A stretch of 64,000 bases of DNA. Origin: Vulcanimicrobium alpinum (lineage in GTDB: Bacteria > Vulcanimicrobiota > Vulcanimicrobiia > Vulcanimicrobiales > Vulcanimicrobiaceae). The stretch is taken from positions 744,001-808,000 of the forward strand of contig NZ_AP025523.1 in assembly GCF_027923555.1 (NCBI RefSeq). The letters are read 5' to 3'. The stretch's first letter is position 1. The number at the start of each line of letters is the position of its first letter. The position numbers were made by a program, and so were the translations under genes. Below, piece after piece: positions 7,057-29,036 of the stretch. Below the pieces are notes generated by a model. It had not been told where the DNA came from. It worked only from the letters and a program-made list of their open reading frames with translations, and did no database searches.

Positions 7057-10000
7057 CTAGAACTTAATGTTCAGCGTCGCGTAGAGCTCAAAGGGGTTGG
7101 CCTGTGCTCCGGTCACGGACTGGAACACGTTCCCGAACGTCGGTGCATACGGATAATTGAAGCCGGGCTGCAGCGTGTCGCCGGGGTTGTAGAAGTTCGA
7201 TCCGTACGTGCCGCCGCCGAAGTTGCAGCCCGCGCGCCCGCCGGGATTCCAGGGAACCGGCGTTCCGCCAAAGCACTGCGCGACGACGTTCACGAAGTCG
7301 ACGCGCAGCGTCGACTGCTTATTGAGGTCGTACGAGACGGTCAAGTTGACGCCGAGCTTGTTGGGTTCGGTGAACTGACCGTAGTTGTCGAAGTGCTTGA
7401 CGAACGGATCGGGGATGACGATGGAACCGCCGCACGTCGCCGCATTGTACGGCGAGCCGGCCTGCGTTCCGGGATAGCGCGGATCGCCGTTCGTGGTGGT
7501 CGCAGCATTGAGCGCCGAGCATCCGGCCGCGGGATCGACGCCGACGACCTGCAGCGGACGCCCGTACTGCGCGCCGCCTTGGAACTGCGCCGTCGGCGTG
7601 AAGTTCCATGGGCCGCGCTTGTAGTTCGCGATCAGCGTCAGGACGTGCGGCGGGATGTAGCTCTGGTTCGAACCGGTGCCCCGCAGGCCGCCGGAGTACG
7701 TGTTGTACACCGGATAGCGGCCGCCCGGATCGAAGAAGCTCTGGACCGGCATGTTCCAGTACGGGTTCGCGACGCTGCCCGCCGCGCATGCGGGGTCGGG
7801 AGCACCCTTCGCCGTGAAGCAGGGGGCTCCGACCGTCCCGGTCGAGGTGGTGGCCGGCGTCCCGAACGTCGTGTTGCAGCGCGCGTCGCTCGGGTTCGTC
7901 GCGCAGAACGACGTGTACGCGTTGTAACGCGCGATCGCGTTGTTCAGCGCCGTGTTGATGTTCGTCCCATTCTGGAACTTGTCGAAGGTGACGCGGGCGA
8001 AGGTGTAGGTATACCCGAGCTGCGTGTACCAGCCGTCCCGCGCGATGTCGCCTTTGCTGAAGGCGAGCTCGAGGCCCTTGACGTTCTTGTGCCCGACGTT
8101 GATGCCGGAGACGAAGCTGGTCTTCGCGTCGAGCAGCACCGTCGTCAGTTCGTTCTTCGTCTGCCGCAGATACGGCGTGAGCTTGAACGACGCGTCGGTG
8201 CCGTTGAACTGATGCTCCCACGAGGCGTCGATGTTGTACGACTCCTCGGGGAAGATCTTGTGGCTCGGGTTGCGGAACCCGATCGGATAGAACACCTGGT
8301 TCGCCGCGATGAAGTTCGGCTGCGTGGTGTTGTACTGCTGGAACGCCGAACTCGCCGGCTGCGCTTACTTGCCGGCCGAGAAGCGCACGACATTGTTGCG
8401 GTTGACCGTATAGGTGGCGCCGATGCGCGGCTGCAGTTCCGGATAATCCTCCTGCGAGTCGCTGTGCGCGTTGAACGCAGCCGGCTGCGTTCCCGCCGGG
8501 CACGCCGCCCCGACCGTGCGCGTGACGAGCACCTCGGCCACCGGATCGAAGCAGTTGAAGTTGTTGAAGTAGTTGACCCAGAACCTGCGCGCCGGTCCAC
8601 CGTCGGTGTTCACGAGCTGGTAGCGGAAGTCGTCGTAGCGCAGTCCTAGATCGAGCGAGAGCTTCTCGTTGACCTGGAATTTGTCGCTCAGCGAGACGTT
8701 GAGGAACTGCGGCGTGACCGTGTTGTACACTGCCGCATTTCCGGTCGCTACGGTGTAGAAAGCGCAGGGACCGTTGCCGCACTTCAAGGCCCCGGCGTTT
8801 GCCACGTTCACCGCCGAGGTGGCAACCAGCGGGCCCCCGTTAGCAGCGGGAAGCGTGTACCGGGCAGCCGTCGACGAGGAACAATTCACCGGGGCCGCGT
8901 TTGCCGTGTAGCAGAGGCCCGCGGTTGGGTTCGTGCTGTCGACGAGGAATGCGACGGTGCGGGAGTTTGCAGCGGTCGTCGCGCCTGAAAGGAATGTCGA
9001 CGTGTTATTGTTGCGGAACGTCGTCGCGGTCGTGTACGAGCCGCTCAGGATGAGCAGGTGCTTGGCGTCGATCTGGTTCGCGTACTGCAGATATCCGCCG
9101 CGCGTGTGCGCGCCGAGCTTGTAATCCTGCGAGATCGAGCCGGTGAAGTTCGGGTTGAGTCCGCCTTCGCCGTACTGCAGCCAGTCGGAGTACTCGGTGT
9201 ACCCGTAGACGCGGATGTACGAACGCGCGTTGATGTTGTGTTGGTATTGCACCTTCGCGATCGACGCGTTCTGCTGGTAGTTGTCGCGTTCGAACGGATC
9301 CTGCGGGCCGTTGACCGCGCGATTCGTCGGCGAGCCCGGGAAGAGTGACAGCTGCGTGTTCGCAAGGTCGCCGGCGCCCAGGAACGTTCCGGTGAGTCCG
9401 TTATAGATCTGCTTGTCGTTGTAGACTCGGGGGTGGCGCCGAAGACGTTGCAGTTCGCCGTCACCGCGCCACCGCACGGTGGGTTGCCGAAGTAGGCACC
9501 GGTGTTGATCCAGTCCTGGAACCCGGGTCCCCAGTCGCTGGGCGCCGAGGCGAAGTACGTCTGCACCAGCGTCGTGTTGTACAAAAGCTGTACGTCGTCG
9601 CGCAGGTCGTCGTGCTTGTGGGGGATCCCGAAGTGGAAGTTCGCGACGGTGTCGCGATCGGTGTCGTATGCGCGGCTGCCCCAGAAGAGCGGTCCCAGCT
9701 CGTAGCCGTTCGGTCCAAGAGGCGCGCCGCCCGCAGCCGTGTTCTTATAGCAGCCGACTGTCGGATTGGGCGTCGTGCAGTTGGCTTTATAGACGTCGAG
9801 AAGGGTGCCGTATTTCGCGTCGTAGAGATTTCCGCGCACGTCGACGATGTTCTGGTTGTAGCCGCCGGTCCCGACGTAGTAATTGAAGTTGCGATCGGGA
9901 GTGGCGCCGCCGCCTTCGAGGCGGATGTTTGCGTAGTGAGTTGGCCCGCCGACCCCGAGCTGGCCGCCGGCAAAGCCGGGGTAGGTTCCGGTGCGGATGA

Positions 10001-10739
10001 CCTGGTTCACGAAACCGGCAAGGGCGGTCGAACCGGTGCTGGTGGGCGCACTGCCGGTGTAGACCTGCACCGACTGCTGGCCGAGGCTAGAAAGATTGTT
10101 GCCCGGATATTGGTCGAAGGCGCGCTGAATGGGTACGCCGTCGTACTCGTAGCCGACTTGGGTGTAGTTCGAGCCGCGAATGAAGATCGACTGATATGAC
10201 GCGTCCTGTCCCTGCGGGACGAACACGCCGGGAACGGACGCGATCGCCGAATAGGCGTTGTTGAGGCCGCCGCCGCCGCCCAGCGTCGCCGCCGCGCTCT
10301 GCTGCGCTGCGGAGATGTTGTAGACGTCGGTGCTCACGCCCGGCTGGATCAGCGAAGTCGTCGCGCGCGAACGCGTGGCGCCGATGCGCTGGAGTGTCTT
10401 GGCCATCGTGACGTTGAAGGTGGTCGTCTGATCGGCTTGCACCGTGATGCCGCTCAGCGACGCGGAATCGTAGCCGGCGATCGACACGACGAGCGTGTAC
10501 GTGTCCGGCTGGAGGGTTAGGAACTGGAACGAGCCGTTCGCGTCAGTGATCTGCGTGGCAGAGCCGGAGGGAGCTGAGGCCGTTACGCGCGCGCCTGCGA
10601 CGGGCGCTTGCGAAGCTACGTCGACGACCCGCCCGCTCAGAGCACCGGTCGTTCCTGCGACTGCGGCGAGCATGCCGTTGCACAGAAATGCGGCGATGAG
10701 CGCGAGAAGGACGACCAGCCTCGAGGATGTTTTACTCAT
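7057..10739 (-). pseudogene. TonB-dependent receptor with carboxypeptidase-regulatory domain, broken twice
   Basis: Restored, this would be an outer-membrane receptor of about 1227 residues. It has a signal peptide (MSKTSSRLVVLLALIAAFL), a CarboxypepD_reg-like domain at about 37-115, a plug and a long aromatic-rich barrel. Translation from 10739 (GAGG about eight bases upstream) runs to a G5 tract at 9429-9433 (C5 in the gene), where one missing base shifts the frame. Beyond it the new frame stays homologous until an in-frame TAA at 8365-8367, at a position in an FSAGK-(Y) motif where Tyr is expected. The same frame then continues to the TAG at 7057-7059. Adding one base makes the whole span exactly divisible by three. 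Either decayed or affected by sequencing error. Confidence 0.85.
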
Positions 10740-11059
10740 CGCGATCCTCGGGGAAGGGATCGGTCCCATCGGCAACGCGGAACGCGCAGGTAGGGGCGCC
10801 CTCCGGACGATCCCGGGAACCTTAAAGTTTCCTTAGAGAGTCTGATTGTGTATGCCTGGTTGCCGTCGCTGCCCTGCCGCGCCGGGCCGCCCCCAAAAAC
10901 CTCAGAGACGCAAGGTCTTTGCCTCTGTGCTAATAAACATTTAATACGGAGAATTGCGGACGCGTCCCTTAGGTCCGGGCGTCCGCAGGATCAGCTCGTA
11001 CAGGCCTCGCCGTCGCGGCAGAGCGAGCGAGGGTTTTTCTTTACGATCGAGGAGCGCTC
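10740..11059. promoter_or_regulatory. Divergent control region between two TonB receptor genes
   Basis: 320 bases with no gene of their own. The stretch 10928-10947 (TGCTAATAAACATTTAATAC) is the most AT-rich part and is the best place for promoter elements. TTGCCT lies about 16-17 bases before TTAATA, a weak match to a housekeeping promoter for the plus-strand receptor. The leader then contains GCGGACGC (10956-10963) facing GCGTCCGC (10979-10986), an 8-bp stem. No riboswitch class is recognised. Because both receptors read outward from here they may share regulation. Confidence 0.4.
10956..10986 (+). other. Hairpin in the leader of the plus-strand TonB receptor gene
   Basis: GCGGACGC and GCGTCCGC form a perfect 8-bp stem with a 15-base loop, 73 bases before the GTG start at 11060. 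It may be an attenuator or an mRNA-stability stem; nothing further can be read from it. Confidence 0.35.
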
Positions 11060-14000
11060 GTGACTCTTACAGAGACATCCAAGGCCATCAGGCGCCTTTT
11101 TGGCGTCGTGGCTGTCGCGACTTTTCTGGCGGCGACGTTCGGCGCTGCCAGCGCCGGAACGACCGGCAACATCAACGGAACCATTACCGCTGTCAACGGC
11201 ACGGCGTTGGCGGGCGTGCAGGTTATCGCGATCTCCCCTTCGGCGAAATATACCGCGACCACCGACGCCAAGGGCTTTTTCGCGATTGCGGGCGTCACGC
11301 CCGATACCTACTCCGTTATCCTTTCCGCGTCGGGATACTCGCCGTATACGGTCAGCGGCGTCACGGTCTTCCAAGATCAGACGGTCGCCGTTAACCAGCA
11401 ACTGAACACGGCGTTGCGTACGATCGGCCGGACGGCGGCGCGCAATCAGGCTTCGGCGTTTCAGCCGACGGTGCCGGAAAATACGATCAATCTCGGGGCG
11501 ACGCAAATTCAGACCCAGTTGGGAAAGAAGAACAACGTCTCGGAAAGCAACCTGCTGGTCTCACTCCCGGGCGCCAGCTTGGACTCCAGCGGATATCCCG
11601 TTCTTCGCGGCGGCCGTGAAAACGAAGAAGGCTTCCAGTTCGAGGGCATCGACTACACCGACGCCTTTACCAGCCAGTTCGTCAACTCGCTCGCGTTGAA
11701 CAACGCCGGTAATTTTCAGTTGACGCCCGGTGCCGGCGACGCCTCGAGCGGCAACACGGGAACGGGCGTGATCAATCTGCTAACAAAACGCGGTTCGTAT
11801 CCGGCGTTCGGTTCCTTAGATGCCGAGCTTCTCACCCGTATCGTCGGCAAGCAGCTCGCCGGCGAGTACGGCTTTGCTACGCCGGACGGCAAAGTGTCAA
11901 ATTATACGACGTACACATTCAACGATCAGGATCGTATCTACGGACCGTACGGGGCAGACCCGGCTTCGATTGGAGCGTTTTTCTCCACCCAGCACCAGCA
12001 CGGCAACGATCTCATCAACAATTTTGTGTACAAGTTCGGCAAGAACAACAATCAATCGCTTCAGGCCCTGTACCAGAACCAGTGGTTCATCTTCAACGGC
12101 AACTACGGCGGCGGCGTCAATCAATTGCCGTACAAGACCAACGATCCGTATGCGCTTTCCCGAATCCGCGTGTACACGGGGCTCACGCCCGCCCAGTTCC
12201 TGCCGCTATTGCAGCCTTACCTGGGTCAAACCAGCCAGACGGATCTGTTGCAATACGTGTCCGGGAGCACACAGCCCAACGAAACGATCAAGCTCCAGTA
12301 TTCGCTCAATCCTGGTCCTTCGTCGTTCTATACCGTTAAGTATTACAAGGTGAACTCCGTTGCGCAGTTCCGGCGTCCGTTCAACAGCGAAGACTCTTTA
12401 GGAAACTACTACTTCTCGGAGCAAGGCGGTCAGCGGACCGGATTTGCCGGCGACGGGAACCTACAACTCGGCAACAAGCATTTGCTAAAGTTTGGGGGCA
12501 AGTACGAACTGCTCACGCCGGTCTTCGGCTACGCCTCACCGGTCTTCGGCGCCGAGGTACTCGGACCGATCCTCGGTAATGGAAACGAGATCAAGGATTT
12601 TTTGCCCGGCGGTTACTTGGCGAAGAACGGCTTCTTCGATCAGACCGTGCCGGTGTTTTGGGAGTCGACATCGACGGTGCGGCAGGACACCTCCGCCTAC
12701 GTGACGGACTCGTGGTCTCCGACCTCGCGTTTGAAGATCGACGCGGGCGTCCGGCTCGACATTAGCAACTACCGCTACCCGAGCCCGACGAGAAATCCGG
12801 AACTTTTCGCGACGAATCCCGACGGCTCGGCGCTCACTTCTATCGATTCGGCGCAGCGGAATCCGCACATCATCGAACCGCGTTTCGCGTTCGCCTATCA
12901 GTTTGGGCGTAACGATGCGATCCGCGGCTCATACGCGCGCACGGTCGAATTCCCGCCGCTCGCCGACGTAGATGCCTTTGTCAACCGCGCATACTACAAC
13001 TCCTTGCCGTACTCGAATCTGCCTGCAACACAGCCCGTGTGTGGAATCTCCGGAACCGGGAAGTGCGCGAGTTATGGCGAGCAGCTATTCTGGGAAAATC
13101 AGAACTTCTCCGGAGTGCCGTTCCAGCCGATCAAGCCGGAGACGTTCTCAAACTTTGATTTTTCGTACTCGCACCAGTTCCCGAACAATCTCTCGGTGAA
13201 GATTACGCCGTTCTACCGGCGTGGTTACGACGCGCTCGTCCAGTACGCCACAGTCCGCACGGTGAACGGCGTTCCGGTAACCGACCCCGTCACGGGTGCC
13301 TATCAGTTTAATCCGTCGCAGTCGTCGAATCTCGGTATCAACCGGACAACCGGCGTGGAACTCTACATTACCAAGGACAACCCCGGTCCGGGATTTTCCG
13401 GTTCGATCTCGGCAACGTACCTCAACGAGTTTTCCAACGTCATCCCGCTTTCGGCGAGTGAAGATTTCTTTCCGACCATTCCGGCCGCGTCGGCGTTGTT
13501 AGGCAAGGTCTACCGCGTCGGCTTCCTCTCACCGTTCCAGGCCACGGCCGCCCTAGCGTATCAGACGAAGAGCGGCTTCCGCATCAATCCGATCGTGTCG
13601 TACAACATCGGTTATCCGATCAGCTATGGCAATTCGACGGCGTATCTCGCGGGCGGCAAGCCGCTCAATGTTCCCAATACGAACGTCACCAGCGGCTTCG
13701 GGTCGTCGGTGGCCCCGAACTACGTCGATCCGCTGAATCCGGGAACGCTGCAACGTCCAAACATCGCGGCATCGCGCGGGACGAACGAAGGAAACGATCC
13801 CGGCAGCAAACTGTCGGCGCAGCGTGTGACTGCAAACCTCTCGATCGAGTTTACCCCCTCGAGAACGCAGAAAGGCGGGACCTACGGGCTGTTTATCTCA
13901 AACCTGTTCAACCAGGTGTACGGACAGCCGTCGCTCAACTCGCGCTGGCAGCCGGTCGCGACGGGCCTCGCCGGCCCCACGACCGGAAAGGTGTCGCAAA

Positions 14001-14128
14001 CCGTCCTGTTCCCGGGCGTCGGCTTCGCGAACTATGATTACGTGCAGCGCTTCGGCAACCAGCCGTACATCATCACTCCGAACGGCGCTCCGCGCTTGTT
14101 CCGTCTCTACTACCAGTTCGCGTTCTAA
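11060..14128 (+). CDS. TonB-dependent outer-membrane receptor with carboxypeptidase-regulatory domain
   Basis: An intact 1022-residue receptor. A signal peptide covers about residues 1-33 (hydrophobic core FGVVAVATFLAATFGAAS). A CarboxypepD_reg-like beta domain follows at about 36-115, with the typical TTDAKGFFAIAGVTPDTYSV strand pattern. The plug domain at about 150-260 includes PVLRGGRENEEGFQFEGIDY, and the remainder is beta-barrel strands ending in a terminal Phe (LYYQFAF), as for BAM substrates. The GTG start has GGAG at 11051-11054. It imports an unknown ligand using TonB. The last base of its stop codon is the first base of the lipoprotein gene start (TAATG), so the two are coupled. It is a divergent paralogue of the broken receptor. 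Confidence 0.9.
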   Translation: MTLTETSKAIRRLFGVVAVATFLAATFGAASAGTTGNINGTITAVNGTALAGVQVIAISPSAKYTATTDAKGFFAIAGVTPDTYSVILSASGYSPYTVSGVTVFQDQTVAVNQQLNTALRTIGRTAARNQASAFQPTVPENTINLGATQIQTQLGKKNNVSESNLLVSLPGASLDSSGYPVLRGGRENEEGFQFEGIDYTDAFTSQFVNSLALNNAGNFQLTPGAGDASSGNTGTGVINLLTKRGSYPAFGSLDAELLTRIVGKQLAGEYGFATPDGKVSNYTTYTFNDQDRIYGPYGADPASIGAFFSTQHQHGNDLINNFVYKFGKNNNQSLQALYQNQWFIFNGNYGGGVNQLPYKTNDPYALSRIRVYTGLTPAQFLPLLQPYLGQTSQTDLLQYVSGSTQPNETIKLQYSLNPGPSSFYTVKYYKVNSVAQFRRPFNSEDSLGNYYFSEQGGQRTGFAGDGNLQLGNKHLLKFGGKYELLTPVFGYASPVFGAEVLGPILGNGNEIKDFLPGGYLAKNGFFDQTVPVFWESTSTVRQDTSAYVTDSWSPTSRLKIDAGVRLDISNYRYPSPTRNPELFATNPDGSALTSIDSAQRNPHIIEPRFAFAYQFGRNDAIRGSYARTVEFPPLADVDAFVNRAYYNSLPYSNLPATQPVCGISGTGKCASYGEQLFWENQNFSGVPFQPIKPETFSNFDFSYSHQFPNNLSVKITPFYRRGYDALVQYATVRTVNGVPVTDPVTGAYQFNPSQSSNLGINRTTGVELYITKDNPGPGFSGSISATYLNEFSNVIPLSASEDFFPTIPAASALLGKVYRVGFLSPFQATAALAYQTKSGFRINPIVSYNIGYPISYGNSTAYLAGGKPLNVPNTNVTSGFGSSVAPNYVDPLNPGTLQRPNIAASRGTNEGNDPGSKLSAQRVTANLSIEFTPSRTQKGGTYGLFISNLFNQVYGQPSLNSRWQPVATGLAGPTTGKVSQTVLFPGVGFANYDYVQRFGNQPYIITPNGAPRLFRLYYQFAF

Positions 14129-15186
14129 TGGAGAGCTCGTTGAACACAATTTTCCGACTGGCCGCGACGGCGGCCCTGGGCGCGCTCGTCACGGCATGTA
14201 CGTCCAACGGCGCCGCCGTCGAACCGTCCGTTACGCAGGCGAACTTGACCGTCAATACGCTCCAGTTCGCCGTCGGAACGGCGAATTATGCAGGAACTGC
14301 CGCGCTCAACACGGTGGTTGCATATCGCCAGCCCAATGGAAACTCCGCGGTTCTGCTCGATACGCCGACGATCACCGGCCCGGCCGGCTTTGTCATTCCG
14401 AGCGTTGCGTCGGCAGGTGTTGATGCCGGCACCAACCATATCAGCGGCAGCCCGCAGGCAACTCCGGGTACTGCCGCGACGCCCTCGACGTTCGGACAGA
14501 GCGGCGGAGCCTTCTCGTACGGGTTCGCGCCGGTGAATTCCAATAATGCCGGAGCGCCCTCATATACGCTCTACTCGCAGCCTTTTTACACGACGCCGCA
14601 ACGGAAATTTACGGGGGGGCCACCGCTCTACCCGAACCCGCAGGACGGCACGTATCCTCCGAACTTCCGTGGCTGGTCGCAAGGGTTCACTTCGTTTGCA
14701 GGCGTCCCGCTGTCGATCGGAACCTACTCGCTCAGTGTCAACGTCCCCGTCGTCAATGCTTCCGGGATCACGCAGACGGCGTCGGCGACCCTCTCCTCCG
14801 CGGCATTGCTGCCGGCGATCCTTGCGCCGACCGTTGCGCGCGCAGGCGCGAACGGAGCAACCGTTACGTTTACTGCCGCTGCAGGCACCACCGAGTCGAT
14901 CGTTTACATCGTCGATTCCACCCAGGGTACGAACTTCTCGGCGCTTACCCGGGGAAGCGGCCCGCAGACCGTGACATTCCCCGACAATCTCGGTGCGCAT
15001 GGCTTCGGCATCGCGCCGACGCCGACGTTCAATACCGGTGACAGCCTCGTGGCGTACGTCGTCGGCTACGATTATGGCGCGTACGAGGCAAGCCCGCCGT
15101 CCAACACGAGTGCTGCCCCGTCGATCACGGGTTTGAACGGACAGGCCGACATCACAGTGTCGCCGAGCACGACGTTCACATACTAG
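14128..15186 (+). CDS. Predicted lipoprotein coupled to the TonB receptor
   Basis: A 352-residue protein with a lipoprotein signal: hydrophobic residues 8-23, then lipobox V-T-A-C with lipidated Cys24. The mature part is rich in Thr, Ser, Gly, Pro and aromatic residues and looks like beta-sandwich repeats. The middle (about 140-190) is Tyr/Pro-rich. No family is recognised. The TAATG junction with the receptor gene suggests a surface or periplasmic partner in ligand capture, comparable in position to SusD-type lipoproteins but not similar in sequence. An IS5-family element is inserted exactly in the TAG stop; its target duplication restores the stop, so the protein is complete. Confidence 0.75.
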   Translation: MESSLNTIFRLAATAALGALVTACTSNGAAVEPSVTQANLTVNTLQFAVGTANYAGTAALNTVVAYRQPNGNSAVLLDTPTITGPAGFVIPSVASAGVDAGTNHISGSPQATPGTAATPSTFGQSGGAFSYGFAPVNSNNAGAPSYTLYSQPFYTTPQRKFTGGPPLYPNPQDGTYPPNFRGWSQGFTSFAGVPLSIGTYSLSVNVPVVNASGITQTASATLSSAALLPAILAPTVARAGANGATVTFTAAAGTTESIVYIVDSTQGTNFSALTRGSGPQTVTFPDNLGAHGFGIAPTPTFNTGDSLVAYVVGYDYGAYEASPPSNTSAAPSITGLNGQADITVSPSTTFTY

Positions 15187-16387
15187 GGAAACTCTGATGA
15201 AGAGCGCGCGCTACGTCGGCTGTCGGTAAAAGGGTTCATGTTGAGCGGCTTTCCTCGATTTACTGAGCGCGTTTGCGAGCTTCGCGGTCCAGATCGCTGG
15301 TTTCGAGAGAAACTACACCCCTCGAAGTGCCGGTCGTCGACGATGCAGGTACAGATTGGCGAGCGCGAAGTTGACGACCAGGCGATGTGCGTTCTTCGCG
15401 ATGCCGCGATAGCGGACTTTCGAAAACCCGAAGATCCGCTTGACGACGTGGAACACATGCTCCACTCGGGCTCGCACCCTGAATTTGTTCGATGAATTTC
15501 GCGCTCGCGGTCGGAGATATTCTTCCGACGAGCGGACCCGCGCGCCGTAAAGTCCGCCGCATGTGGTGCTTGCGACCGGATCACCGCGGTCTGACCGCGA
15601 TACGCCGAGTCTCCCCAGACCCGCGTTTCGGCTCCGTGCAAGAGTTCCGGGAGAACGCGACTGTCGTGCGTGTTCGCCGGCGTCGCAACGAACGAATGCA
15701 CGATCCGCGACTTGCTATCCACGCCGATGTGAGCCTTCATTCCGAGGTGCCACTCGTTGCCTTTCATCGTCTGGTGCATTTCGGGATCACGCTTCCCGTC
15801 GCTGTTCTTGGTCGAGCTGGGCGCGTGAATAATCGTCGCGTCGACGATCGTCCCGCGCGAAACCTTGACGCCCGCCTTCGCCAGATGATCGTTGATCTCG
15901 TGTAGAATCTTCGGCCCCAAACCATGTCGTTCAAGCAAATGCCGAAACTTGCAGACCGTCGTCTCGTCGGGCGCCGGCTCCCGTCCCAGGTCGATCTTCG
16001 CGAACGCCCGCATCGAAACGCTGCGATTCCTCGACGGCGGGGTCGCTTAGGTTGAACCACTGCTGCAAGAAGTGGCGCTTCAGGACTTCGGGTGGGCGGG
16101 CAAGAGGTCGAGCCCACCACAGTGGAATAGAATCGCCGCTGCAAATCGGCCCTCATTGCGATAGCCGCGCGCGCGGAATTTGATCATTTGGATCTTGCTG
16201 TTGAGGCTCTCGGCTGCCGCATTGGTGATCGGCTTGCGAATGTACGTGATGATGTTCGCAAAGTGACGTTTGAGCGTGCGCGCGACGCTGATCATTTCGG
16301 GCAATTGAGAGTGCGTCGCCCACCGGTACCAATCGGCAAAGAAACGACGCGCTGCGGACTCACGCCGATATCGCCAGAACTCCGTAA

Positions 16388-17755
16388 GATCGTGTCCCGG
16401 CCCGTGGTGTATGAGAGGGTCGCCCTTGTAGCATAGAGAGCGGCCATCGTGGCTTTCGGCGAAGGTTGTTTTTGCAACAAATAACCGACCGAAAGGGATC
16501 CACGATGGCCAAACCCAGTATCGCACTTTCCGAGCTCGTCGAAAAGGGCGGCGACGTCGACTTCGTTCGCGAGATGCTCCAGTACGCCGGGCAGCGGATC
16601 ATGGAGATCGATGTTGAGGAACTCTGCGGCTTGCCCTACGGCGAGCGCGGCCCCGGCCGACAGAACGCCCGCAACGGCTTCCGCGAGCGCCAATGGGAGA
16701 CGCGTTCCGGCACGATCGGACTGCGCATCCCCAAGTTGCGCAAAGGTAGCTACTTCCCCGCGTTCCTCGAGCCGCGCCGCACGGCGGAGAAGGCGCTCAC
16801 CGCCGTCATCCAAGAGGCCTACATCCAGGGCATCTCCACGCGCTCGGTCGACGAGCTCGTCAAGGCGATGGGGATGACAGGCATCTCCAAGAGTCAGGTC
16901 TCACGGCTGTGCGAAGAGATCGACGAACGCGTGAACGCATTTCTTACCCGGCCGATCGAAGGCGACTGGCCCTATCTTTGGATCGACGCGACGTACGTGA
17001 AGACGCGCTCCGGCGGACGCATCGTCTCGGTCGCCGTGATACTGGCCGTCGGCGTAAACACCGATGGGACACGGGAATTGTTGGGCCTCGCGGTTGGTCC
17101 GAGCGAAGCAGAGCCGTTCTGGATCGACTTTCTTCGCAGCTTGAGCCGCCGCGGATTGCGCGGTGTCAAGCTCGTCATTTCCGACTCGCATGTCGGCCTG
17201 AAAGCGGCCATCGCGAAAGTATTCAAAGCAACGTGGCAGCGCTGCCGCGTGCATTTTATGCGAAACGCGCTCGCACATGCGGGTAAAGGGCAACGGCAGA
17301 TGGTCCTCGCGTTGATCAACACGGTATTCGCGCAAGAGACAGCGGAAGCTGCGCACGAGCAATGGCGTATCGTCTCCGAGCAGCTTCGGCAGAAGTTCCC
17401 GAAGCTCGCGGCGATGATGGACGACGCCGAGAACGACGTGCTCGCGTACATGGACTTTCCCAAGGCGCACCGCAAGCAGATCGCCTCAACCAATCCGCTC
17501 GAACGGGTCAACGCGGAGATCAAGCGGCGCACCGATGTCGTCGGTATCTTCCCGAACGATGCTGCCATCGTACGCCTCGTCGGTGCGCTCCTACTGGAAC
17601 AGAACGACGAATGGCAACTGCAGCGGCGCTACATGCAACTCGAAGGACTCAGTGCCGTCAGCGATAATCAGCCCGCCAAGCTCTCCGCCGTGATTAACGG
17701 CTGAGCGCTACCCTCGCCGAGCCACCGCTCGTACACCACGGCTGGGGACACGATC
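16388..17755 (+). mobile_element. IS256-family element, complete, 1368 bp (innermost)
   Basis: Flanked by a perfect 8-base duplication CTCCGTAA (16380-16387 and 17756-17763), the duplication size of the IS256 family. The terminal inverted repeats are about 26 bases long: the left begins GATCGTGTCCCGGCCCGTGG and the right, read inward, begins GATCGTGTCCCCAGCCGTGG, followed by TGTA on both sides. It carries one intact transposase in the opposite orientation to the interrupted ISL3 gene. It is the most recent insertion of the three and probably the only one still capable of self-transposition. Confidence 0.93.
16505..17704 (+). CDS. IS256-family transposase (mutator type)
   Basis: A full-length 399-residue mutator-type transposase. 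The N-terminal part has [20 protein letters not shown] and the [12 protein letters not shown] segment. The catalytic DDE residues lie in [20 protein letters not shown] (first Asp), [17 protein letters not shown] (second Asp) and [20 protein letters not shown] (Glu); CRVHFMRN is also typical. The start at 16505 is preferred to 16466 because a GAAAGGG ribosome site lies about eight bases upstream and the protein then begins MAKPSIAL, at family length. Confidence 0.93.
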
Positions 17756-19000
17756 CTCCGTAAAGTGCTCCTTCATCGACCACGCGCGGCCAAGGCGTTT
17801 GTACTGGCTCCGCAAGGCGCTCAGATCACGTCGTTCGTCGCGGTCGAGATTCGCAAACGAGCGCAACCAGGAATACTTAGTCCCTTTCAATGCCGTTCGG
17901 TCGAGCGTCTTGTCACGCATCATCGCTCGACGAGTGAGATCGACGGCTTTGGTGAGATATGCCGTGATGTGGTACTTATCGAAGACGATCTTCCGTGCCG
18001 CATCGGGCACGTGTGCTACGGTCGACTCGAAGTACGGCTGCCACATATCCATCGCGATGCCCTCAATGGCATGAAGTTGTTCGTGCGAAAGGCCGTCGTA
18101 GAAAGCGTCAATCGATTCGCGCTTGCGACCGCGACCGACCCACAGGACCTCGCCGCGGTCCAAGTCGGACACGATCGTGAAGTACCGATGCCGCTTTTTG
18201 ACGGCCTTCTCGTCGATGCCGAGATGCCGCACAAGACGTGGCAGTCGCCGCTGCTTACCGCGCTCGACCGCCCGGAGCATAATGGAATCGACTTGCTCCC
18301 AGCTGATGCCCAAGCGACGCGCGACCGCCGCGACGGACATCTCGAGTAGGAGGGCGATCGCCAAACGCTCGAAGCGCGACGTAAACTCGGTGCGACCGCT
18401 TGACCAGGGAATCGCAACGGTCGTGACGCCGTGCTCGGGACAATCGATCCGGGGTACGGAGGCGTGCAAGAAAAGTTGGTCGCCGGCCAGATCGAGGTCA
18501 CGCCAGACGCGCTCGCGATGATCGTGCTTGGGGCACTCCCGATCGCATTTTGGACAGCGACCCGCGCCTTGCCATTCAAGCCGAACATCGACCCGATTTC
18601 GCTCGAGATCGAGCTTTGATTCGGTCACGTCCCAAGGATCTTCGACGCGCAGCAACCCGCGGATGAATTCGGTGTCTCGCATGGCGTAGCATTACGACGG
18701 CCGACCGATTTCCTCTCGCCCGCCCACTACAAAACCGGAAGACCCCAAGAAGTAAATACGAAGCATGCGTTCCAACGGAATCGGCGGCCGACCGCCTTCG
18801 CCGGTCGGGTAGTGCGGTGCGATCAGCGTGCACAATCGCTCCCACGGCACCACGGCGTCCATCTCGATGAGGAATTCAGCACGTCGCGTCGCGCGAGCGT
18901 AACGCTCGAATCCAGCGCTCGCGAACGACATTTGCTCTTTACGCTTCATCATCAACATTGTAGCAAATACACCCCCTTTTTCAGGGTTTCCCTAGTTTCG

Positions 19001-22190: not shown

Positions 22191-23264
22191 GTGCCGAAAC
22201 CGACCATCGTCGTCCTCGAGGGCGATCAAACCGGACAAGAACTCCTCGTCGAATCGCTGCGCGTGCTGGCACCGGACGTGATCGGCCTCGACGTCGAACG
22301 CGAGCACTTCGATCTCTCGCTCCAAAACCGCCGCAAGACGGGCAACGCCGTCGTGCACGAAGCCGCCGCGGCGATGAAGCGAACGAAGCTCGGCTTGAAA
22401 GCCGCGACGATCACCCCGGAGACGAAGGGCGACGTCGGCTCGCCCAACGCGATCCTGCGCAGCGCGATCGACGGCAAAGTCATCGTGCGCACGGGCCGGC
22501 GCATCCCCGGCGTTCGCCCGGTTGCGGGGATTCACGCTCCGATCTCGGTGGTGCGCATGGCGGTCGGCGACGCGTATGGCGCCAAGGAGTGGCGCGAAGA
22601 GCAGAACGGCGACGAGGTCGCGTACCGCACCGAACGCATCGAGCGATCGGTGTGCCGCGTCGTCTCCGAGTACGCGTTCTATCACGCGCGCCGCGCCGGA
22701 GCGAAAGTCTTCGGAGGTCCCAAGTACACTGTCAGTCCGGTGTACGAAGGGATGCTCAAAGAGGAGATGGATGCCGCAGCGCAGCGCTACCCCGACGTCG
22801 CGTACGAACCGCAGCTCATCGACGCCACCTACGCGCTCCTCATCTCGACCTCGGGCGATCCGATGGTGATCCCGTCGCTCAACCGCGACGGCGACTGCCT
22901 CTCCGATCTGGTGATGCAGCTCTTCGGTTCGATCGCCGGCGCGGAGTCGACGCTGATGTCGTTCACGCGCGACGGAAAGCCGGACGTCGTAATGACCGAA
23001 GCGCCGCACGGCACCGCGCCGCGACTGCAGGGCAAGAACGTCGCCAATCCCATGGCGATGGTCCTCGCAGCCGCTGCGCTGCTGACGTTCGTCGACGACC
23101 GCCGGGCGACCAATGCGTCGCGCGCCATTTACGAGTCGGTGCTCGAGACCGTCCGCGACGGAATCGCGACCAGCGACCTCGGCGGCCAGGCGTCCACCAC
23201 GGAATTCACCGACGCCGTGATCGCGAAGGTGAAAACGAAGCTCGATGTGTGGGCTACGCTCTAA
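22191..23264 (+). CDS. Isocitrate/isopropylmalate dehydrogenase family protein
   Basis: A 357-residue beta-decarboxylating dehydrogenase. The N-terminus reads TIVVLEGDQTGQELL where most relatives have GDGIGP. The substrate-binding strand includes TKGDVGSPNAILR and a VIVRTGRRIPGVRP segment. Downstream, CLSDLVMQLFGSIAGAES and EAPHGTAPRLQGKNVANPMA match the metal- and cofactor-binding parts. Reactant could be isocitrate, 3-isopropylmalate or homoisocitrate; lack of leucine-pathway neighbours and the GSPN motif make isocitrate the better guess. The GTG start gives family length; an in-frame start at 21951 would run antisense through ftsK and is rejected. Confidence 0.8.
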   Translation: MPKPTIVVLEGDQTGQELLVESLRVLAPDVIGLDVEREHFDLSLQNRRKTGNAVVHEAAAAMKRTKLGLKAATITPETKGDVGSPNAILRSAIDGKVIVRTGRRIPGVRPVAGIHAPISVVRMAVGDAYGAKEWREEQNGDEVAYRTERIERSVCRVVSEYAFYHARRAGAKVFGGPKYTVSPVYEGMLKEEMDAAAQRYPDVAYEPQLIDATYALLISTSGDPMVIPSLNRDGDCLSDLVMQLFGSIAGAESTLMSFTRDGKPDVVMTEAPHGTAPRLQGKNVANPMAMVLAAAALLTFVDDRRATNASRAIYESVLETVRDGIATSDLGGQASTTEFTDAVIAKVKTKLDVWATL

Positions 23265-24048
23265 CCGCGTCCGGACATCGCACGTTCGAGCGGGTATCGC
23301 CGTCGCGAGCGCGTGTGCCTGGATCGCCGCCGCGCCTTCCACCGCTCCGCCGAACCCGTTTACGCTCGACGCAGCGACCCCGTCGCCGTCGCCGATCGCT
23401 CTGCCCGAGATCGGCCGTGTCCGTTCGACGGGGATCGCATGCGTCGCGATGCGGGACCTCGTCATCCCGTCGTTCGCCGCCGCTCGCCGCAACGATACGG
23501 AGTACGCGGATGCGACCCAGCGTCTGAAGCGCTACATCAGTGCTTCCGACGACGACTCCAATAAGCAGGCTCCGGCGTACCTCGAGGGTCTGCTGTCCAA
23601 GCTCGACATGAATGTCTCGGCGCTGCGGACAAGCCTGCTCGTCATCAATCGCGCGCTGGGCGATCCGCGCATCTCTGCCGACGCGGTGAGGGGTAATCCG
23701 CAACTGAGCGACCTTCGCGCACAATTACAGCGCATCTACGCCGTGCAAGCCGATCGCACGAATGCCTTGGGTGAGTTCGTCATGCGCGAACAAGCGGCGA
23801 TGAACCGTGCCGAATTCAGCGCCGGCAGCACGGCGTTTTCCGGACGCGGCACGAGGACGCCCGCGACCGAGTCGATACCGGCCGCGGCGCCGACGAGGCA
23901 GCCCATCGGGATGCCGGTGCGAAGCGGAATCGAGTTTGGGGATATCGCGTCGATCGCCGACTGGACCGGAAGTTACGTTCGCCAGGTCCGCCAAACCGAA
24001 AATGGGGCAGCGAAGGTCTTTTTCCCGATCGCTCAGTCGTGTCGCTGA
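23245..24048 (+). CDS. Secreted protein of unknown function
   Basis: A 267-residue protein overlapping the 3' end of the dehydrogenase gene by 20 bases. A basic N-terminus and a hydrophobic stretch (AGIAVASACAWIAAA, about 16-30) suggest a signal peptide, followed by a Pro/Ser-rich segment. The mature part is mainly helical (TQRLKRYISASDDDSNKQAP, and YLEGLLSKLDMNVSALRTSL). It resembles small periplasmic helical proteins, but no family is recognised. The C-terminal part has low-complexity Ala/Pro/Arg, then SIADWTGSYVRQVRQTEN. The start could be slightly further downstream. Confidence 0.6.
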   Translation: MCGLRSNRVRTSHVRAGIAVASACAWIAAAPSTAPPNPFTLDAATPSPSPIALPEIGRVRSTGIACVAMRDLVIPSFAAARRNDTEYADATQRLKRYISASDDDSNKQAPAYLEGLLSKLDMNVSALRTSLLVINRALGDPRISADAVRGNPQLSDLRAQLQRIYAVQADRTNALGEFVMREQAAMNRAEFSAGSTAFSGRGTRTPATESIPAAAPTRQPIGMPVRSGIEFGDIASIADWTGSYVRQVRQTENGAAKVFFPIAQSCR

Positions 24049-26001: not shown

Positions 26002-27153
26002 GTGACCACGGCCGACCCCGCCCTGCGCGCGATCGAGTGCAAGCTCGATGAGGGTATCTCGCTCTCGCTCGAAGACGGCTTGACTCTTTTCCGCACCAGC
26101 GACATCCACACGCTGGGGCGCCTGGCCAAAACCGCCAAGGAACGCAAGAGCCGGAACGAGGTCTACTACGTCCTCAACCGCTACATCAACTCGACGAACG
26201 TGTGCTACGCGAACTGCACGTTCTGTTCGTTCTCGCGCGGCGAAAAGGACGTCGACCGGGTGCGCATGTCGGCCGATCAAGTCGTCGCGAAGGCGCTGGA
26301 GACGGGGACCAACTTCAACCAGCTCCACATCGTCGGCGGGCACGATCCGCGTCAGCTCTCGCTCGACTACTGGCTGCCGCTGATGCGCCGGTTCAAAGAG
26401 CAGCTGCCGCACGTCCAGCTCTCGCTGTTTACCGCCGCCGAGATCGACTACATGGCGCGCCGGCACCGGCTCTCGTACGATGAGATCGTCGCTCAGCTCG
26501 CCGAGGCCGGCCTCGACAACGTCAACGGCGGCGGCGCCGAGGTGTTCTCGGAGCGATTCCGCCGCGAGGTCTGCCCCAACAAGGTCGACGCCGCCCATTG
26601 GCTGGAGATCCACGAGACGCTGCACCGTCACGGCGTCGCTTCGAATGCGACGATGCTCTACGGCACGATCGAGACGCTCGAAGAACGGCTCGAACATTTG
26701 ATCATGCTGCGCGAATCGCAGCGCCGCTCGCCCGGCTACAATGCGTTCATCCCGCTCGCATTCCATCCCGACGGCAACGCGCTCTCGCACCACGGCTGGA
26801 CGTCCGGACTCGACGACATCCGCATGTTCGCGGTTTCGCGGCTGATGCTCGACAATTTCGACCACATCAAAGCGTACTGGATGATCCAGGGGATCAAAGT
26901 CTGCCAGCTCGCGCTCGAGTTCGGGGCCGACGACATGGACGGCACGCACGGTTCGACCGACGAAGAGATGATCTACCACTCGGCCGGCACGCGTTCGGGG
27001 CAGTACGTCGACGACCGCGAGTTCCGGCGTTTGATCGAAGAGGCGGGCTACGTTCCGGTGCGCCGCAACTCGACGTATCAGACGTTCCCGCACGACTGGA
27101 AGCCCGAAGACGGGATGCCGGAGCGCGCGCTCGCGGGTGCCGGCGCTGTCTAA
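26002..27153 (+). CDS. mqnE: MqnE, aminofutalosine synthase (radical SAM)
   Basis: Radical SAM enzyme joining 3-(1-carboxyvinyloxy)benzoate and S-adenosylmethionine to form aminofutalosine, the second step of the futalosine menaquinone pathway. The 383-residue protein has the cluster motif CYANCTFC (Cys68, Cys72, Cys75) and a C-terminal domain shared with MqnC and CofG/H-type enzymes (SGLDDIRMFAVSRLMLDNFD, WMIQGIKVCQLALEFGADDM). The GTG start has a strong GGAGG at 25987-25991. It leads the mqnE-mqnA-mqnC run, whose genes overlap by 14-17 bases. Confidence 0.95.
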   Translation: MTTADPALRAIECKLDEGISLSLEDGLTLFRTSDIHTLGRLAKTAKERKSRNEVYYVLNRYINSTNVCYANCTFCSFSRGEKDVDRVRMSADQVVAKALETGTNFNQLHIVGGHDPRQLSLDYWLPLMRRFKEQLPHVQLSLFTAAEIDYMARRHRLSYDEIVAQLAEAGLDNVNGGGAEVFSERFRREVCPNKVDAAHWLEIHETLHRHGVASNATMLYGTIETLEERLEHLIMLRESQRRSPGYNAFIPLAFHPDGNALSHHGWTSGLDDIRMFAVSRLMLDNFDHIKAYWMIQGIKVCQLALEFGADDMDGTHGSTDEEMIYHSAGTRSGQYVDDREFRRLIEEAGYVPVRRNSTYQTFPHDWKPEDGMPERALAGAGAV

Positions 27154-27967
27154 CACGCGCACCGGCGAGCCGCTGCGCTACGGCCGCATGGGCTTCGTCA
27201 ACGTGGCGCCGATCGAGACGGCGTTCGACGCCGGCGCGGTCGCGCGCGACGTCGTTGAAGTCTCCGACGTACCGACGCGTCTCAACGCGATGCTGGTCGC
27301 CGGCGAACTCGACGTCGCGGCGATCAGCGCCGCGCACTATCTCGCGCACCGCGACGAACTCGCGCTGCTGGGCGACTGCTGCATCGCCTCCGACGGCCCG
27401 GTGCGTTCGGTGCTGCTGGTCTCGCCGATCCCGCCCGCACTGCTCGAGGGCGCGTCGATCGCGGTTACGGCGCAGTCGGCGTCGGGTCGCGCGCTCCTTG
27501 CGACGCTGCTCGAGCACGTGCAGCACGTCCGTCCGACGTACGACGTCGTCGACGATGCGCTCGGCGCCGCGCGCGCCGGCCGGCCCGCCCTGATCATCGG
27601 CGACGACGCGCTCGTCGCGCGCGGCGCGTGCCCGCCGGCGCAGATTCACGATCTCGGCGAAGCGTGGTCGCGCTGGACCGGGCTGCCGTTCGTCTTCGCC
27701 GTGTGGGCGGTGCGCCGCGACGTCGCGCGGCGCCGTCCCGCCGAGGTCGCCGCGCTCGCCGCGGCGCTCGCGGAGGCGCGCGCGTGGGGCACCGCGCATC
27801 GCGATGCCGTGATCGAAGCGGCGATCGCGCGCAAGCCGTTCCATCGCGGTCTGTACGCCGACTATTTTACCCGCTTGCGCTACGTGCTCGACGAACGCGC
27901 GCAGCGCGGCCTCGCCCGGTTCGCCGACCTTTTCCTGCCCAAGGAGCCCGCTCGTGTCCCTCGCTGA
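27137..27967 (+). CDS. mqnA: MqnA, chorismate dehydratase
   Basis: First enzyme of the futalosine pathway, dehydrating chorismate to 3-(1-carboxyvinyloxy)benzoate. The 276-residue protein has the periplasmic-binding-protein-like fold of the family: MGFVNVAPIETAF near residue 18, VPTRLNAMLVAGELDVAAIS near 45, and a C-terminal WTGLPFVFAVWAVRRD segment near 179. It starts at a GTG inside the end of mqnE and overlaps mqnC by 14 bases, so all three are probably made from one message. MqnB and MqnD, needed for later steps, are not in this window. Confidence 0.92.
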   Translation: MPALSNTRTGEPLRYGRMGFVNVAPIETAFDAGAVARDVVEVSDVPTRLNAMLVAGELDVAAISAAHYLAHRDELALLGDCCIASDGPVRSVLLVSPIPPALLEGASIAVTAQSASGRALLATLLEHVQHVRPTYDVVDDALGAARAGRPALIIGDDALVARGACPPAQIHDLGEAWSRWTGLPFVFAVWAVRRDVARRRPAEVAALAAALAEARAWGTAHRDAVIEAAIARKPFHRGLYADYFTRLRYVLDERAQRGLARFADLFLPKEPARVPR

Positions 27968-29036
27968 CGTCCTCGACCGCGCCGCCGCCGGCGGCCGGCT
28001 CTCATTCGATGAGGGCGTGCGGCTCTACCGCGAGGCACCGCTGCACGCGCTCGGCGCCGCCGCGCACGCGCGCCGCATGGCGATGTATCCGACCAACGAC
28101 GTCACCTACGTCGTCGACACCACCATCAACTACACCAACGTCTGCAACGTGCACTGCACGTTCTGCGCGTTCTTCCGGCCCGAGCACCACGCCGAAGGCT
28201 ACACCATGTCGCACGACAAGGTGCTCGAGCGCGTGAAGTACGCGGCCGATCAGGGCGCGACGCAGATCATGATCCAGGGCGGCGTCAACCCCGAGCTGCG
28301 CATCGGCTGGTTCGAAGAACTCTTCCGGCGCGTCGCCGCGGAGTACCCGGACGTCGACATCCACTCGCTCTCGGTCTCGGAGATCTCCGGGCTCGCGACG
28401 ATCGAAGGGATGACGACCCGGGCGGTGCTCGAGCGGCTCAAGGCCGCCGGGATGAAGTCGCTGCCGGGCGCCGGTGCGGAGATTCTGGTCGAGCGCGTAC
28501 GCAAGCGGATCAGCGCGCGCAAGATCGTCCCCGACGCATGGATCGACGTGATGCGCGACGCGCAGCAGCTCGGGATGCCGACCACGGCGACGATGATGTT
28601 CGGCTCGATCGAGACCGACGACGAACGCATCGCGCACATGAAGGTGATCCGCGACCTGCAGGACGAGTCCGAGGGGTTCACCGCGTTCATCCCGTGGTAC
28701 TACGTGCCGTACAAGACGCCGCTGCGCGGGCGCGAAGCGACGGGCCTCGAGTACTTGCGCGTGCTCGCGGTCTCGCGGCTCTTCCTCGACAACGTGCCGC
28801 ACCTGCAGGCGTCGTGGCTGACGCCTGGATTGAAGCTCGGTCAGCTCGCGCTGTTCTACGGCTGCGACGACATGGGCGGGACGATCATCGAAGAGCAGGT
28901 CGTCCACGATGCCGGCGGCGGCAACGAAGCGACGCGCGCGCAGCTCGAAGAGATCATCCGCGGCGCCGGCTTCACCCCCGTCATCCGCGATACGTACTGG
29001 AATCTGCGCAACGACTTGGCGCTCGCCACGGCCTAA
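27954..29036 (+). CDS. mqnC: MqnC, cyclic dehypoxanthinylfutalosine synthase (radical SAM)
   Basis: Radical SAM cyclase that converts dehypoxanthine futalosine to its cyclic form in menaquinone synthesis. The 360-residue protein has the cluster motif CNVHCTFC (Cys64, Cys68, Cys71), then QIMIQGGVNPELRIGWFEEL, and the family-specific FIPWYYVPYKTPLRG and SWLTPGLKLGQLALFYGCDD segments. The GTG start overlaps mqnA. It is a paralogue of mqnE two genes upstream, but the two are clearly separate subfamilies. It converges on mnmA with three bases between stops. Confidence 0.95.
   Translation: MSLADVLDRAAAGGRLSFDEGVRLYREAPLHALGAAAHARRMAMYPTNDVTYVVDTTINYTNVCNVHCTFCAFFRPEHHAEGYTMSHDKVLERVKYAADQGATQIMIQGGVNPELRIGWFEELFRRVAAEYPDVDIHSLSVSEISGLATIEGMTTRAVLERLKAAGMKSLPGAGAEILVERVRKRISARKIVPDAWIDVMRDAQQLGMPTTATMMFGSIETDDERIAHMKVIRDLQDESEGFTAFIPWYYVPYKTPLRGREATGLEYLRVLAVSRLFLDNVPHLQASWLTPGLKLGQLALFYGCDDMGGTIIEEQVVHDAGGGNEATRAQLEEIIRGAGFTPVIRDTYWNLRNDLALATA

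What the first reader, a model, noticed from the sequence alone, without database searches (positions are those of the whole stretch)
11060..15186. TonB receptor coupled by TAATG to a lipoprotein of no recognised family
The tight overlap implies equal production of an outer-membrane receptor with a carboxypeptidase-regulatory domain and a Tyr/Pro/Thr-rich lipoprotein. The arrangement resembles SusC/SusD nutrient-capture pairs outside Bacteroidetes, but the lipoprotein shows no SusD-like helical repeats; it looks beta-rich. This may be an undescribed ligand-capture system.
Basis: inference. Interest (0 to 1): 0.6.

Follow-up and report, generated by a model that had tools for sequence, protein, structure and literature searches.

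The report
Two-part outer-membrane receptor of Eremiobacterota
A bacterium from a poorly known soil phylum carries an outer-membrane import channel whose gene is followed by one for an otherwise unknown membrane-anchored protein, probably a capture lid, and the two have evolved together across the phylum, a two-part design known best from gut Bacteroides.

Summary
A TonB-dependent receptor (TBDR, 11060-14128) is followed by a lipoprotein (14128-15186). TAATG is literally there, but the likelier lipoprotein start is TTG 14140 behind GGAG. Neither refuting condition was met. The lipoprotein matches no Pfam, NCBIfam or PDB sequence. The pair is strikingly conserved: the family occurs in 78 of 149 phylum genomes (Eremiobacterota/WPS-2), and 87 of 88 lipoprotein genes tested have a TBDR stop codon 35-224 nt before the lipobox cysteine. 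All 18 well-supported lipoprotein-tree splits recur in the TBDR tree, including clades that mix taxonomic families. AlphaFold gives the lipoprotein two Ig/FN3-like beta-sandwiches (pLDDT 71), not a SusD helical fold. SusD_RagB was found in 0 of 149 genomes. The TBDR has the TBDT fold and a lineage-wide TonB-box-like motif; TonB and ExbD genes are present. One clade of pairs is linked to PstS-like and beta-propeller lipoproteins (PstS: 10 of 11 regions, 0 of 30 others). Best reading: a lipoprotein-assisted TonB importer that works like SusCD or BtuBG but belongs to neither. Substrate, physical complex and surface exposure are not shown. A 2023 paper calls lipoprotein-capped TBDTs apparently exclusive to Bacteroidetes; this would be a counter-example.

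The parts
11060..14128 (+). TonB-dependent receptor (TBDR) of the pair, 1022 aa, GTG start
   Evidence: ORF; PF13620 and PF00593; TBDT fold by model m3693cf70efd5, Z 22.7-26.1 to solved TBDTs in the 50 rows shown, but model pLDDT only 60
11171..11404 (+). N-terminal CarboxypepD_reg domain (aa 38-115)
   Evidence: PF13620 1e-14; PF13715 3.8e-7, below its cut-off
11414..11434 (+). TonB-box-like motif LRTIGRT (aa 119-125)
   Evidence: IGx[TVIA] stands just before the plug in all 17 TBDRs looked at in this genome: 15 elsewhere, the pair and the neighbour; function inferred
12191..13636 (+). beta-barrel match (aa 378-859)
   Evidence: PF00593 2.3e-13
14128..15186 (+). lipoprotein ORF as drawn from the overlapping ATG, 352 aa
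14130..14133 (+). GGAG, Shine-Dalgarno-like
   Evidence: matches TAA-GGAG-N-start of relatives
14140..15186 (+). lipoprotein from the likelier TTG start, 348 aa
   Evidence: lipobox Cys then at residue 20 as in relatives
14197..14199 (+). lipobox cysteine (VTAC)
   Evidence: invariant in alignments A1 and A2
14242..14796 (+). first Ig/FN3-like beta-sandwich, approximate limits, with long inserts
   Evidence: AlphaFold model, PDB matches are FN3 domains
14491..14661 (+). insert of mature residues 99-155: mostly low model confidence but strongly conserved (YGFAPxNS ... GGPPxYP)
   Evidence: 11 of 29 invariant positions in 57 of 329 residues, hypergeometric p 0.005
14809..15183 (+). second FN3-like beta-sandwich
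   Evidence: model residues about 205-329
15183..18682 (.). three transposase genes directly downstream (DDE_Tnp_1, Mutator family, ISL3): bound the pair, not part of it
   Evidence: Pfam

Best explanation
The two genes make one outer-membrane import machine. The receptor is a TonB-driven beta-barrel channel with an N-terminal carboxypeptidase-regulatory-like domain. The lipoprotein, anchored in the outer membrane by its lipid, is its dedicated partner: two Ig/FN3-like domains with long conserved Pro/Gly/aromatic loops that capture the ligand or close over the barrel and pass the ligand on; TonB-ExbBD then pulls the plug. Shown here: gene structure, conservation, adjacency, co-evolution, fold class, presence of TonB and ExbD genes. 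Inferred: physical complex, surface exposure, ligand capture, import direction. Substrate of the window's pair: unknown. For one clade of pairs a phosphate-containing ligand is suggested by a linked PstS-like lipoprotein.
For: Adjacency: 87 of 88 lipoprotein genes with 5' end and upstream DNA in hand follow a TBDR, stop-to-Cys 35-224 nt. Co-evolution: Mantel r 0.91, 0 of 2000 permutations as high; 18 of 18 lipoprotein splits with support >=0.95 are in the TBDR tree, and clades mixing taxonomic families f1, f2, f3 are shared. Distribution: 78 of 149 phylum genomes, 38 of 70 genera. Often bicistronic, with an oppositely oriented gene next. Lipoprotein fold: two beta-sandwiches. TBDR fold, TonB-box-like motif, 5 TonB_C and 2 ExbD matches in the genome. 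Conserved loops poorly folded alone, as expected of a partner- or ligand-binding segment. Extra propeller lipoproteins abut the pair in two lineages; PstS-like proteins beside one pair clade, 10 of 11 regions against 0 of 30.
Against: No complex, surface exposure, binding or transport was tested. Nothing shows which leaflet the lipoprotein faces; no acidic surface-export signal follows the Cys (0 of 87). Co-evolution could partly reflect shared species history (r is not corrected for it). The tandem Ig/FN3 fold is generic, Z 5.8-7.0 in the rows shown. The PstS link covers one clade that excludes the window's pair, and the window's genome had no match to that protein. Known importers of this layout have alpha-helical or propeller lids, not Ig folds.
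Confidence: 0.6

Rival explanations
1. The lipoprotein faces the periplasm and helps assemble or regulate the receptor (a chaperone, or a part that touches plug or TonB) rather than binding ligand outside.
For: Outer-membrane lipoproteins often face inward by default (recalled); residues after Cys are neutral (T 30, G 29, S 26, A 2 of 87) with no acidic cluster; partnership is one to one in 87 of 88.
Against: Long, variable, uncharged Thr/Pro/Gly loops and Ig domains look extracellular (inference); no general assembly role, since 13 other plug-bearing receptors of the genome that were examined have no lipoprotein behind them (read by eye).
Confidence: 0.2
2. The receptor works as an exporter (like Oar of Myxococcus, recalled) and the lipoprotein is its cargo or cargo receptor.
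For: CarboxypepD_reg plus barrel also describes Oar-type receptors (recalled); the lipoprotein has a secreted composition.
Against: Lipobox Cys invariant, so the cargo would be lipid-anchored; PstS-like and propeller binding proteins beside one clade suggest uptake.
Confidence: 0.08
3. The pair is specifically a phosphate or organophosphate uptake system across the phylum.
For: PstS-like PBP_like_2 lipoprotein within the fetched region in 10 of 11 regions of one pair clade, on both sides of a f1/f3 split, operonic in f1 and divergent in f3; the R-x-D-x-SGT segment aligns with the E. coli phosphate-binding protein and is conserved in all 11 homologues.
Against: 0 of 30 other regions, the window included; of 32 PstS-like matches phylum-wide several lie on contigs without a listed pair; different clades may have different ligands.
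Confidence: 0.12

Closest known systems
SusC/SusD (RagA/RagB) glycan and peptide importers of Bacteroidetes
   Same: TBDT with an N-terminal carboxypeptidase-regulatory-like domain (recalled for SusC), lipoprotein gene immediately downstream, tight co-evolution, extra lipoproteins in some operons
   Different: Lipoprotein is not SusD: no Pfam match, beta-sandwich not helical; SusD_RagB found in 0 of 149 phylum genomes
BtuB/BtuG vitamin B12 importer of Bacteroides (PMC10404256, passages read)
   Same: TBDT capped by a non-SusD beta-rich surface lipoprotein; a precedent for other lid folds
   Different: BtuG is a seven-bladed propeller; ours has two Ig/FN3-like domains. Propeller lipoproteins occur only as extra genes in some of our operons
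TbpA/TbpB and HpuA/HpuB of Neisseria (PMC7857515, passages read)
   Same: Two-part receptor of TBDT plus beta-rich lipoprotein outside Bacteroidetes
   Different: TbpB is a bilobed barrel-plus-handle protein exported with Slam; no sequence match here and the model shows beta-sandwiches
SusE/SusF-type surface glycan-binding lipoproteins (recalled)
   Same: Ig-like tandem domains on a lipoprotein beside a TBDT
   Different: No sequence match; here the lipoprotein is the constant second gene, not an accessory

Membership tests
TonB-dependent transporters | C-terminal beta-barrel | tested here: met
   PF00593 2.3e-13; model Z 22.7-26.1, rmsd 2.7-5.2, 470-567 residues aligned to solved TBDTs in the rows shown, model pLDDT 60
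TonB-dependent transporters | Plug domain | tested here: inconclusive
   No PF07715 match in the pair's receptor; the plug region of the model is mostly below pLDDT 50
TonB-dependent transporters | TonB box before the plug, and TonB/ExbD in the genome | tested here: met
   LRTIGRT matches the motif before the plug of all 16 other receptors looked at; its TonB-box role is inferred; TonB_C 5 and ExbD 2 matches
SusCD | SusD-family alpha-helical lipoprotein | tested here: not met
   0 of 23 members match any Pfam family; SusD_RagB in 0 of 149 genomes, control rang in Bacteroides; model is beta
SusCD | Receptor gene directly followed by lipoprotein gene | tested here: met
   87 of 88
SusCD | Receptor matches a SusC/RagA family model | tested here: not met
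   NCBIfam gave only a sub-threshold S-layer hit at E<=1; that NCBIfam holds a SusC model is recalled
BtuBG | Beta-propeller lipoprotein lid | tested here: not met
   Two beta-sandwich domains in the model; no NHL or SBBP match
TbpAB/HpuAB | TbpB-like lipoprotein and Slam export | tested here: inconclusive
   No Pfam or PDB sequence match; PF04575 0 of 149 but no control genome rang
Bacterial outer-membrane lipoproteins | Lipobox with invariant Cys, no Asp at +2 | tested here: met
   Cys invariant; +2 is T, G, S or A in 87 of 87
Lipoprotein-capped TBDTs (functional class) | Lipoprotein exposed on the surface and bound over the barrel | not testable with these tools
   No complex prediction available; surface exposure cannot be read from sequence

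The most novel reading that the evidence does not exclude
Eremiobacterota independently evolved a class of lipoprotein-capped TonB transporters whose lid is a new tandem Ig/FN3 family, reaching the surface by an unknown route, with substrate types set by pair clade, one of them a phosphate-capturing module with a PstS-like lipoprotein and propeller lipoproteins.
Probability: 0.4. Interest if true: 0.75.

Novelty: new variant of a known kind. Interest (0 to 1): 0.55.

Why it matters
[quoted passage not shown] A co-evolving receptor-lipoprotein pair spread over three families of another phylum, with an unrelated lipoprotein, would make this a convergent design. It would also raise the question of how lipoproteins reach the surface there, and give a concrete handle on what these oligotrophic, mostly uncultured soil bacteria take up. 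A cultured relative (Vulcanimicrobium) exists for tests. The lipoprotein family is also a missing annotation: half of the phylum's genomes searched carry it and no family library searched here names it.

Tried and rejected
SusD homology: rejected. Known unrelated family for the lipoprotein: none in Pfam, NCBIfam or PDB by sequence or profile. TAATG as the true start: less likely than TTG 14140. A lipoprotein behind every receptor: rejected, 13 of the 15 other plug-bearing receptors of the genome were examined by eye and none has one within 500 nt, and only one copy of this lipoprotein was found there. The mqn (futalosine menaquinone) genes next to many pairs as a function clue: mqnA-like ORFs in 8 of 41 regions and ftsK-like in 9, on either side of the pair; taken as synteny. 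Slam search uninformative because no control rang. Papers on Eremiobacterota receptors: two hits for Eremiobacterota+TonB-dependent, neither on such a pair (listing; passages of one); WPS-2+TonB+lipoprotein none; Eremiobacterota+outer membrane+receptor+lipoprotein one, not on the subject by its abstract; searches for SusD outside Bacteroidetes, carboxypeptidase-regulatory TBDRs in Acidobacteria, and SusCD with 'lipoprotein partner' gave 0. Foldseek and VIA rows shown for the lipoprotein contain no SusD, TbpB or BtuG, which does not exclude them. The family-wide scan used one peptide pattern, so absence outside the phylum is weakly tested. Of six f3 receptors that resemble the pair's but had no listed lipoprotein (L149-L154), five showed no lipobox ORF by my regular expression and one (L151) did; L160, fetched for a partial lipoprotein match, also showed none.
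Full report
WHAT IS THERE. The window lies in a 3,508,363-base single-contig genome. A TBDR gene (11060-14128, +) is followed by a lipoprotein gene (14128-15186, +). TAA and ATG share an A. The receptor carries PF13620 and PF00593. The lipoprotein has a signal peptide, a lipobox, no Pfam match, no NCBIfam match and no PDB sequence match of note. Three transposase genes follow directly, so the pair is the whole local unit.

THE START CODON. In relatives the lipoprotein often starts 8-12 nt after the receptor stop behind GGAG, with the lipobox Cys at residue 19-20. In the window GGAG 14130-14133 and TTG 14140 give Cys at residue 20; the overlapping ATG gives 24. Over 87 scored pairs, 34 have a stop/start overlap, and the window is the only one of those with a Shine-Dalgarno-like sequence after the stop; 39 others have such a sequence without an overlap. 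I therefore think the TAATG is mostly coincidental here, while close coupling is real.

CONSERVATION. A protein search found the lipoprotein in 77 of 149 genomes of the phylum at E<=0.001; a profile from 21 members found it in 78 of 149 at E<=1e-10, 38 of 70 genera. A scan of 84,980 species genomes gave 24 loci, nearly all titled Eremiobacterota, WPS-2 or just 'bacterium'; one titled Rhodospirillales has the contig length and hit of a phylum genome. That scan used one peptide pattern, so restriction to the phylum is likely but not proven. The genome's size, G+C of the window (67.0%) and phylum fit Vulcanimicrobium alpinus WC8-2 (3.50 Mbp, 68.4%; PMC9758169, passages), but identity was not tested.

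PARTNERSHIP. I had upstream DNA for 91 lipoprotein genes; three gave no scorable piece (L133, L141, L147). Of the 88 left, 87 have the receptor's stop 35-224 nt before the Cys, median 66, 83 of 87 within 35-90. The exception is an extra copy in G120 just upstream of a normal pair. Distances of receptor and lipoprotein correlate over 41 pairs (Mantel r 0.91, 0 of 2000 permutations); this is not corrected for species history. Stronger: all 18 lipoprotein splits with support >=0.95 occur in the receptor tree, and clades that mix taxonomic families f1, f2 and f3 are shared by both trees, so pairs were inherited or moved as units. Without a support threshold the trees share 24 of 38 splits; nearest neighbours agree in 20 of 41. 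A divergent short form of the lipoprotein follows further receptors: 8 of 14 extra regions, eight of which had been fetched for a partial lipoprotein match. In the window's own genome the arrangement is special: 13 of 15 other plug-bearing receptors were examined and none has a lipoprotein behind it.

FOLD. The mature lipoprotein model (23 sequences, pLDDT 71, pTM 0.76) is two beta-sandwich domains with long loops; the best PDB matches are FN3/Ig domains (Foldseek 1.4e-4; VIA Z up to 7.0 at 8-9 A), a generic fold. Eleven of 29 invariant positions lie in the mostly low-confidence insert 99-155 (p 0.005), which I read as a segment ordered by a partner or ligand. The receptor model is weaker (pLDDT 60) but matches solved TBDTs (Z 22.7-26.1 in the rows shown) without singling out SusC. 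A motif IGx[TVIA] sits before the plug in 17 of 17 receptors looked at in this genome and is a candidate TonB box. TonB_C (5) and ExbD (2) matches exist.

CLUES TO SUBSTRATE. Many pairs have no operon mates; in many regions the next gene faces the other way. In one pair clade (11 of the 41 regions) the neighbourhood holds a PstS-like PBP_like_2 protein in 10 of 11 regions, in none of the 30 others (Fisher 1e-8), on the pair's strand in f1 and divergently transcribed in f3. Its R-x-D-x-SGT segment aligns to the E. coli phosphate-binding protein and is conserved in all 11 homologues from these regions. Propeller (NHL/SBBP) lipoproteins abut the pair in f1 and f3 members, and a DUF4397 lipoprotein is part of the f1 cluster. 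The regions were chosen by me for contig length, not at random. The window's pair is outside that clade, and its genome had no match to this PstS-like protein.

COMPARISON. It works like SusCD or BtuBG but fails their defining lipoprotein tests. The BtuBG authors wrote that lipoprotein-capped TonB transporters seem exclusive for Bacteroidetes, though Neisseria TbpAB-type receptors are a related two-part design (PMC7857515, passages). I found no paper on such a pair in this phylum in the searches listed; 'tonb' and 'lipoprotein' do not occur in the main text of the Vulcanimicrobium paper.

VERDICT. A real, conserved, co-evolving two-gene receptor with a new lipoprotein family; new variant of a known kind; mechanism likely ligand capture and TonB-driven import, 0.6.

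Noticed in passing
window 7057-10775 (-): A second CarboxypepD_reg/plug receptor, divergent from the pair, is split over three open frames (9045-10775, 8365-9477, 7057-8295), so it looks frameshifted in two places.
   Followed up: partly
window 26002-29036 (+): Futalosine-pathway menaquinone genes (two CofH_C radical SAM genes around a VitK2_biosynth gene); mqnA-like ORFs lie near the pair in 8 of 41 regions, upstream or downstream of it.
   Followed up: partly
window 23245-24045 (+): Protein without Pfam match whose N-terminal part reads ...PEIGRVR, like the TonB-box-like motif of the receptors; a protein with a similar stretch sits near another pair (L061:4599-5384).
   Followed up: no
L082:11274-16725: Behind the pair: beta-propeller lipoprotein, PstS-like lipoprotein, DUF4397 lipoprotein and a 359-aa lipoprotein without a Pfam match over its cut-off: an extracytoplasmic gene set of one clade.
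   Followed up: partly
L151, L155-L159, L161, L162: A divergent, shorter form of the lipoprotein (frames of about 266-345 aa) follows further receptors in f3 and one f1 genome.
   Followed up: partly
L078:13416-14816 (-): Orphan extra lipoprotein copy just upstream of a complete pair, the one exception to adjacency.
   Followed up: no
window 15183-18682: Three different transposases (DDE_Tnp_1, Mutator, ISL3) stacked directly behind the lipoprotein stop, an apparent insertion hot spot.
   Followed up: no
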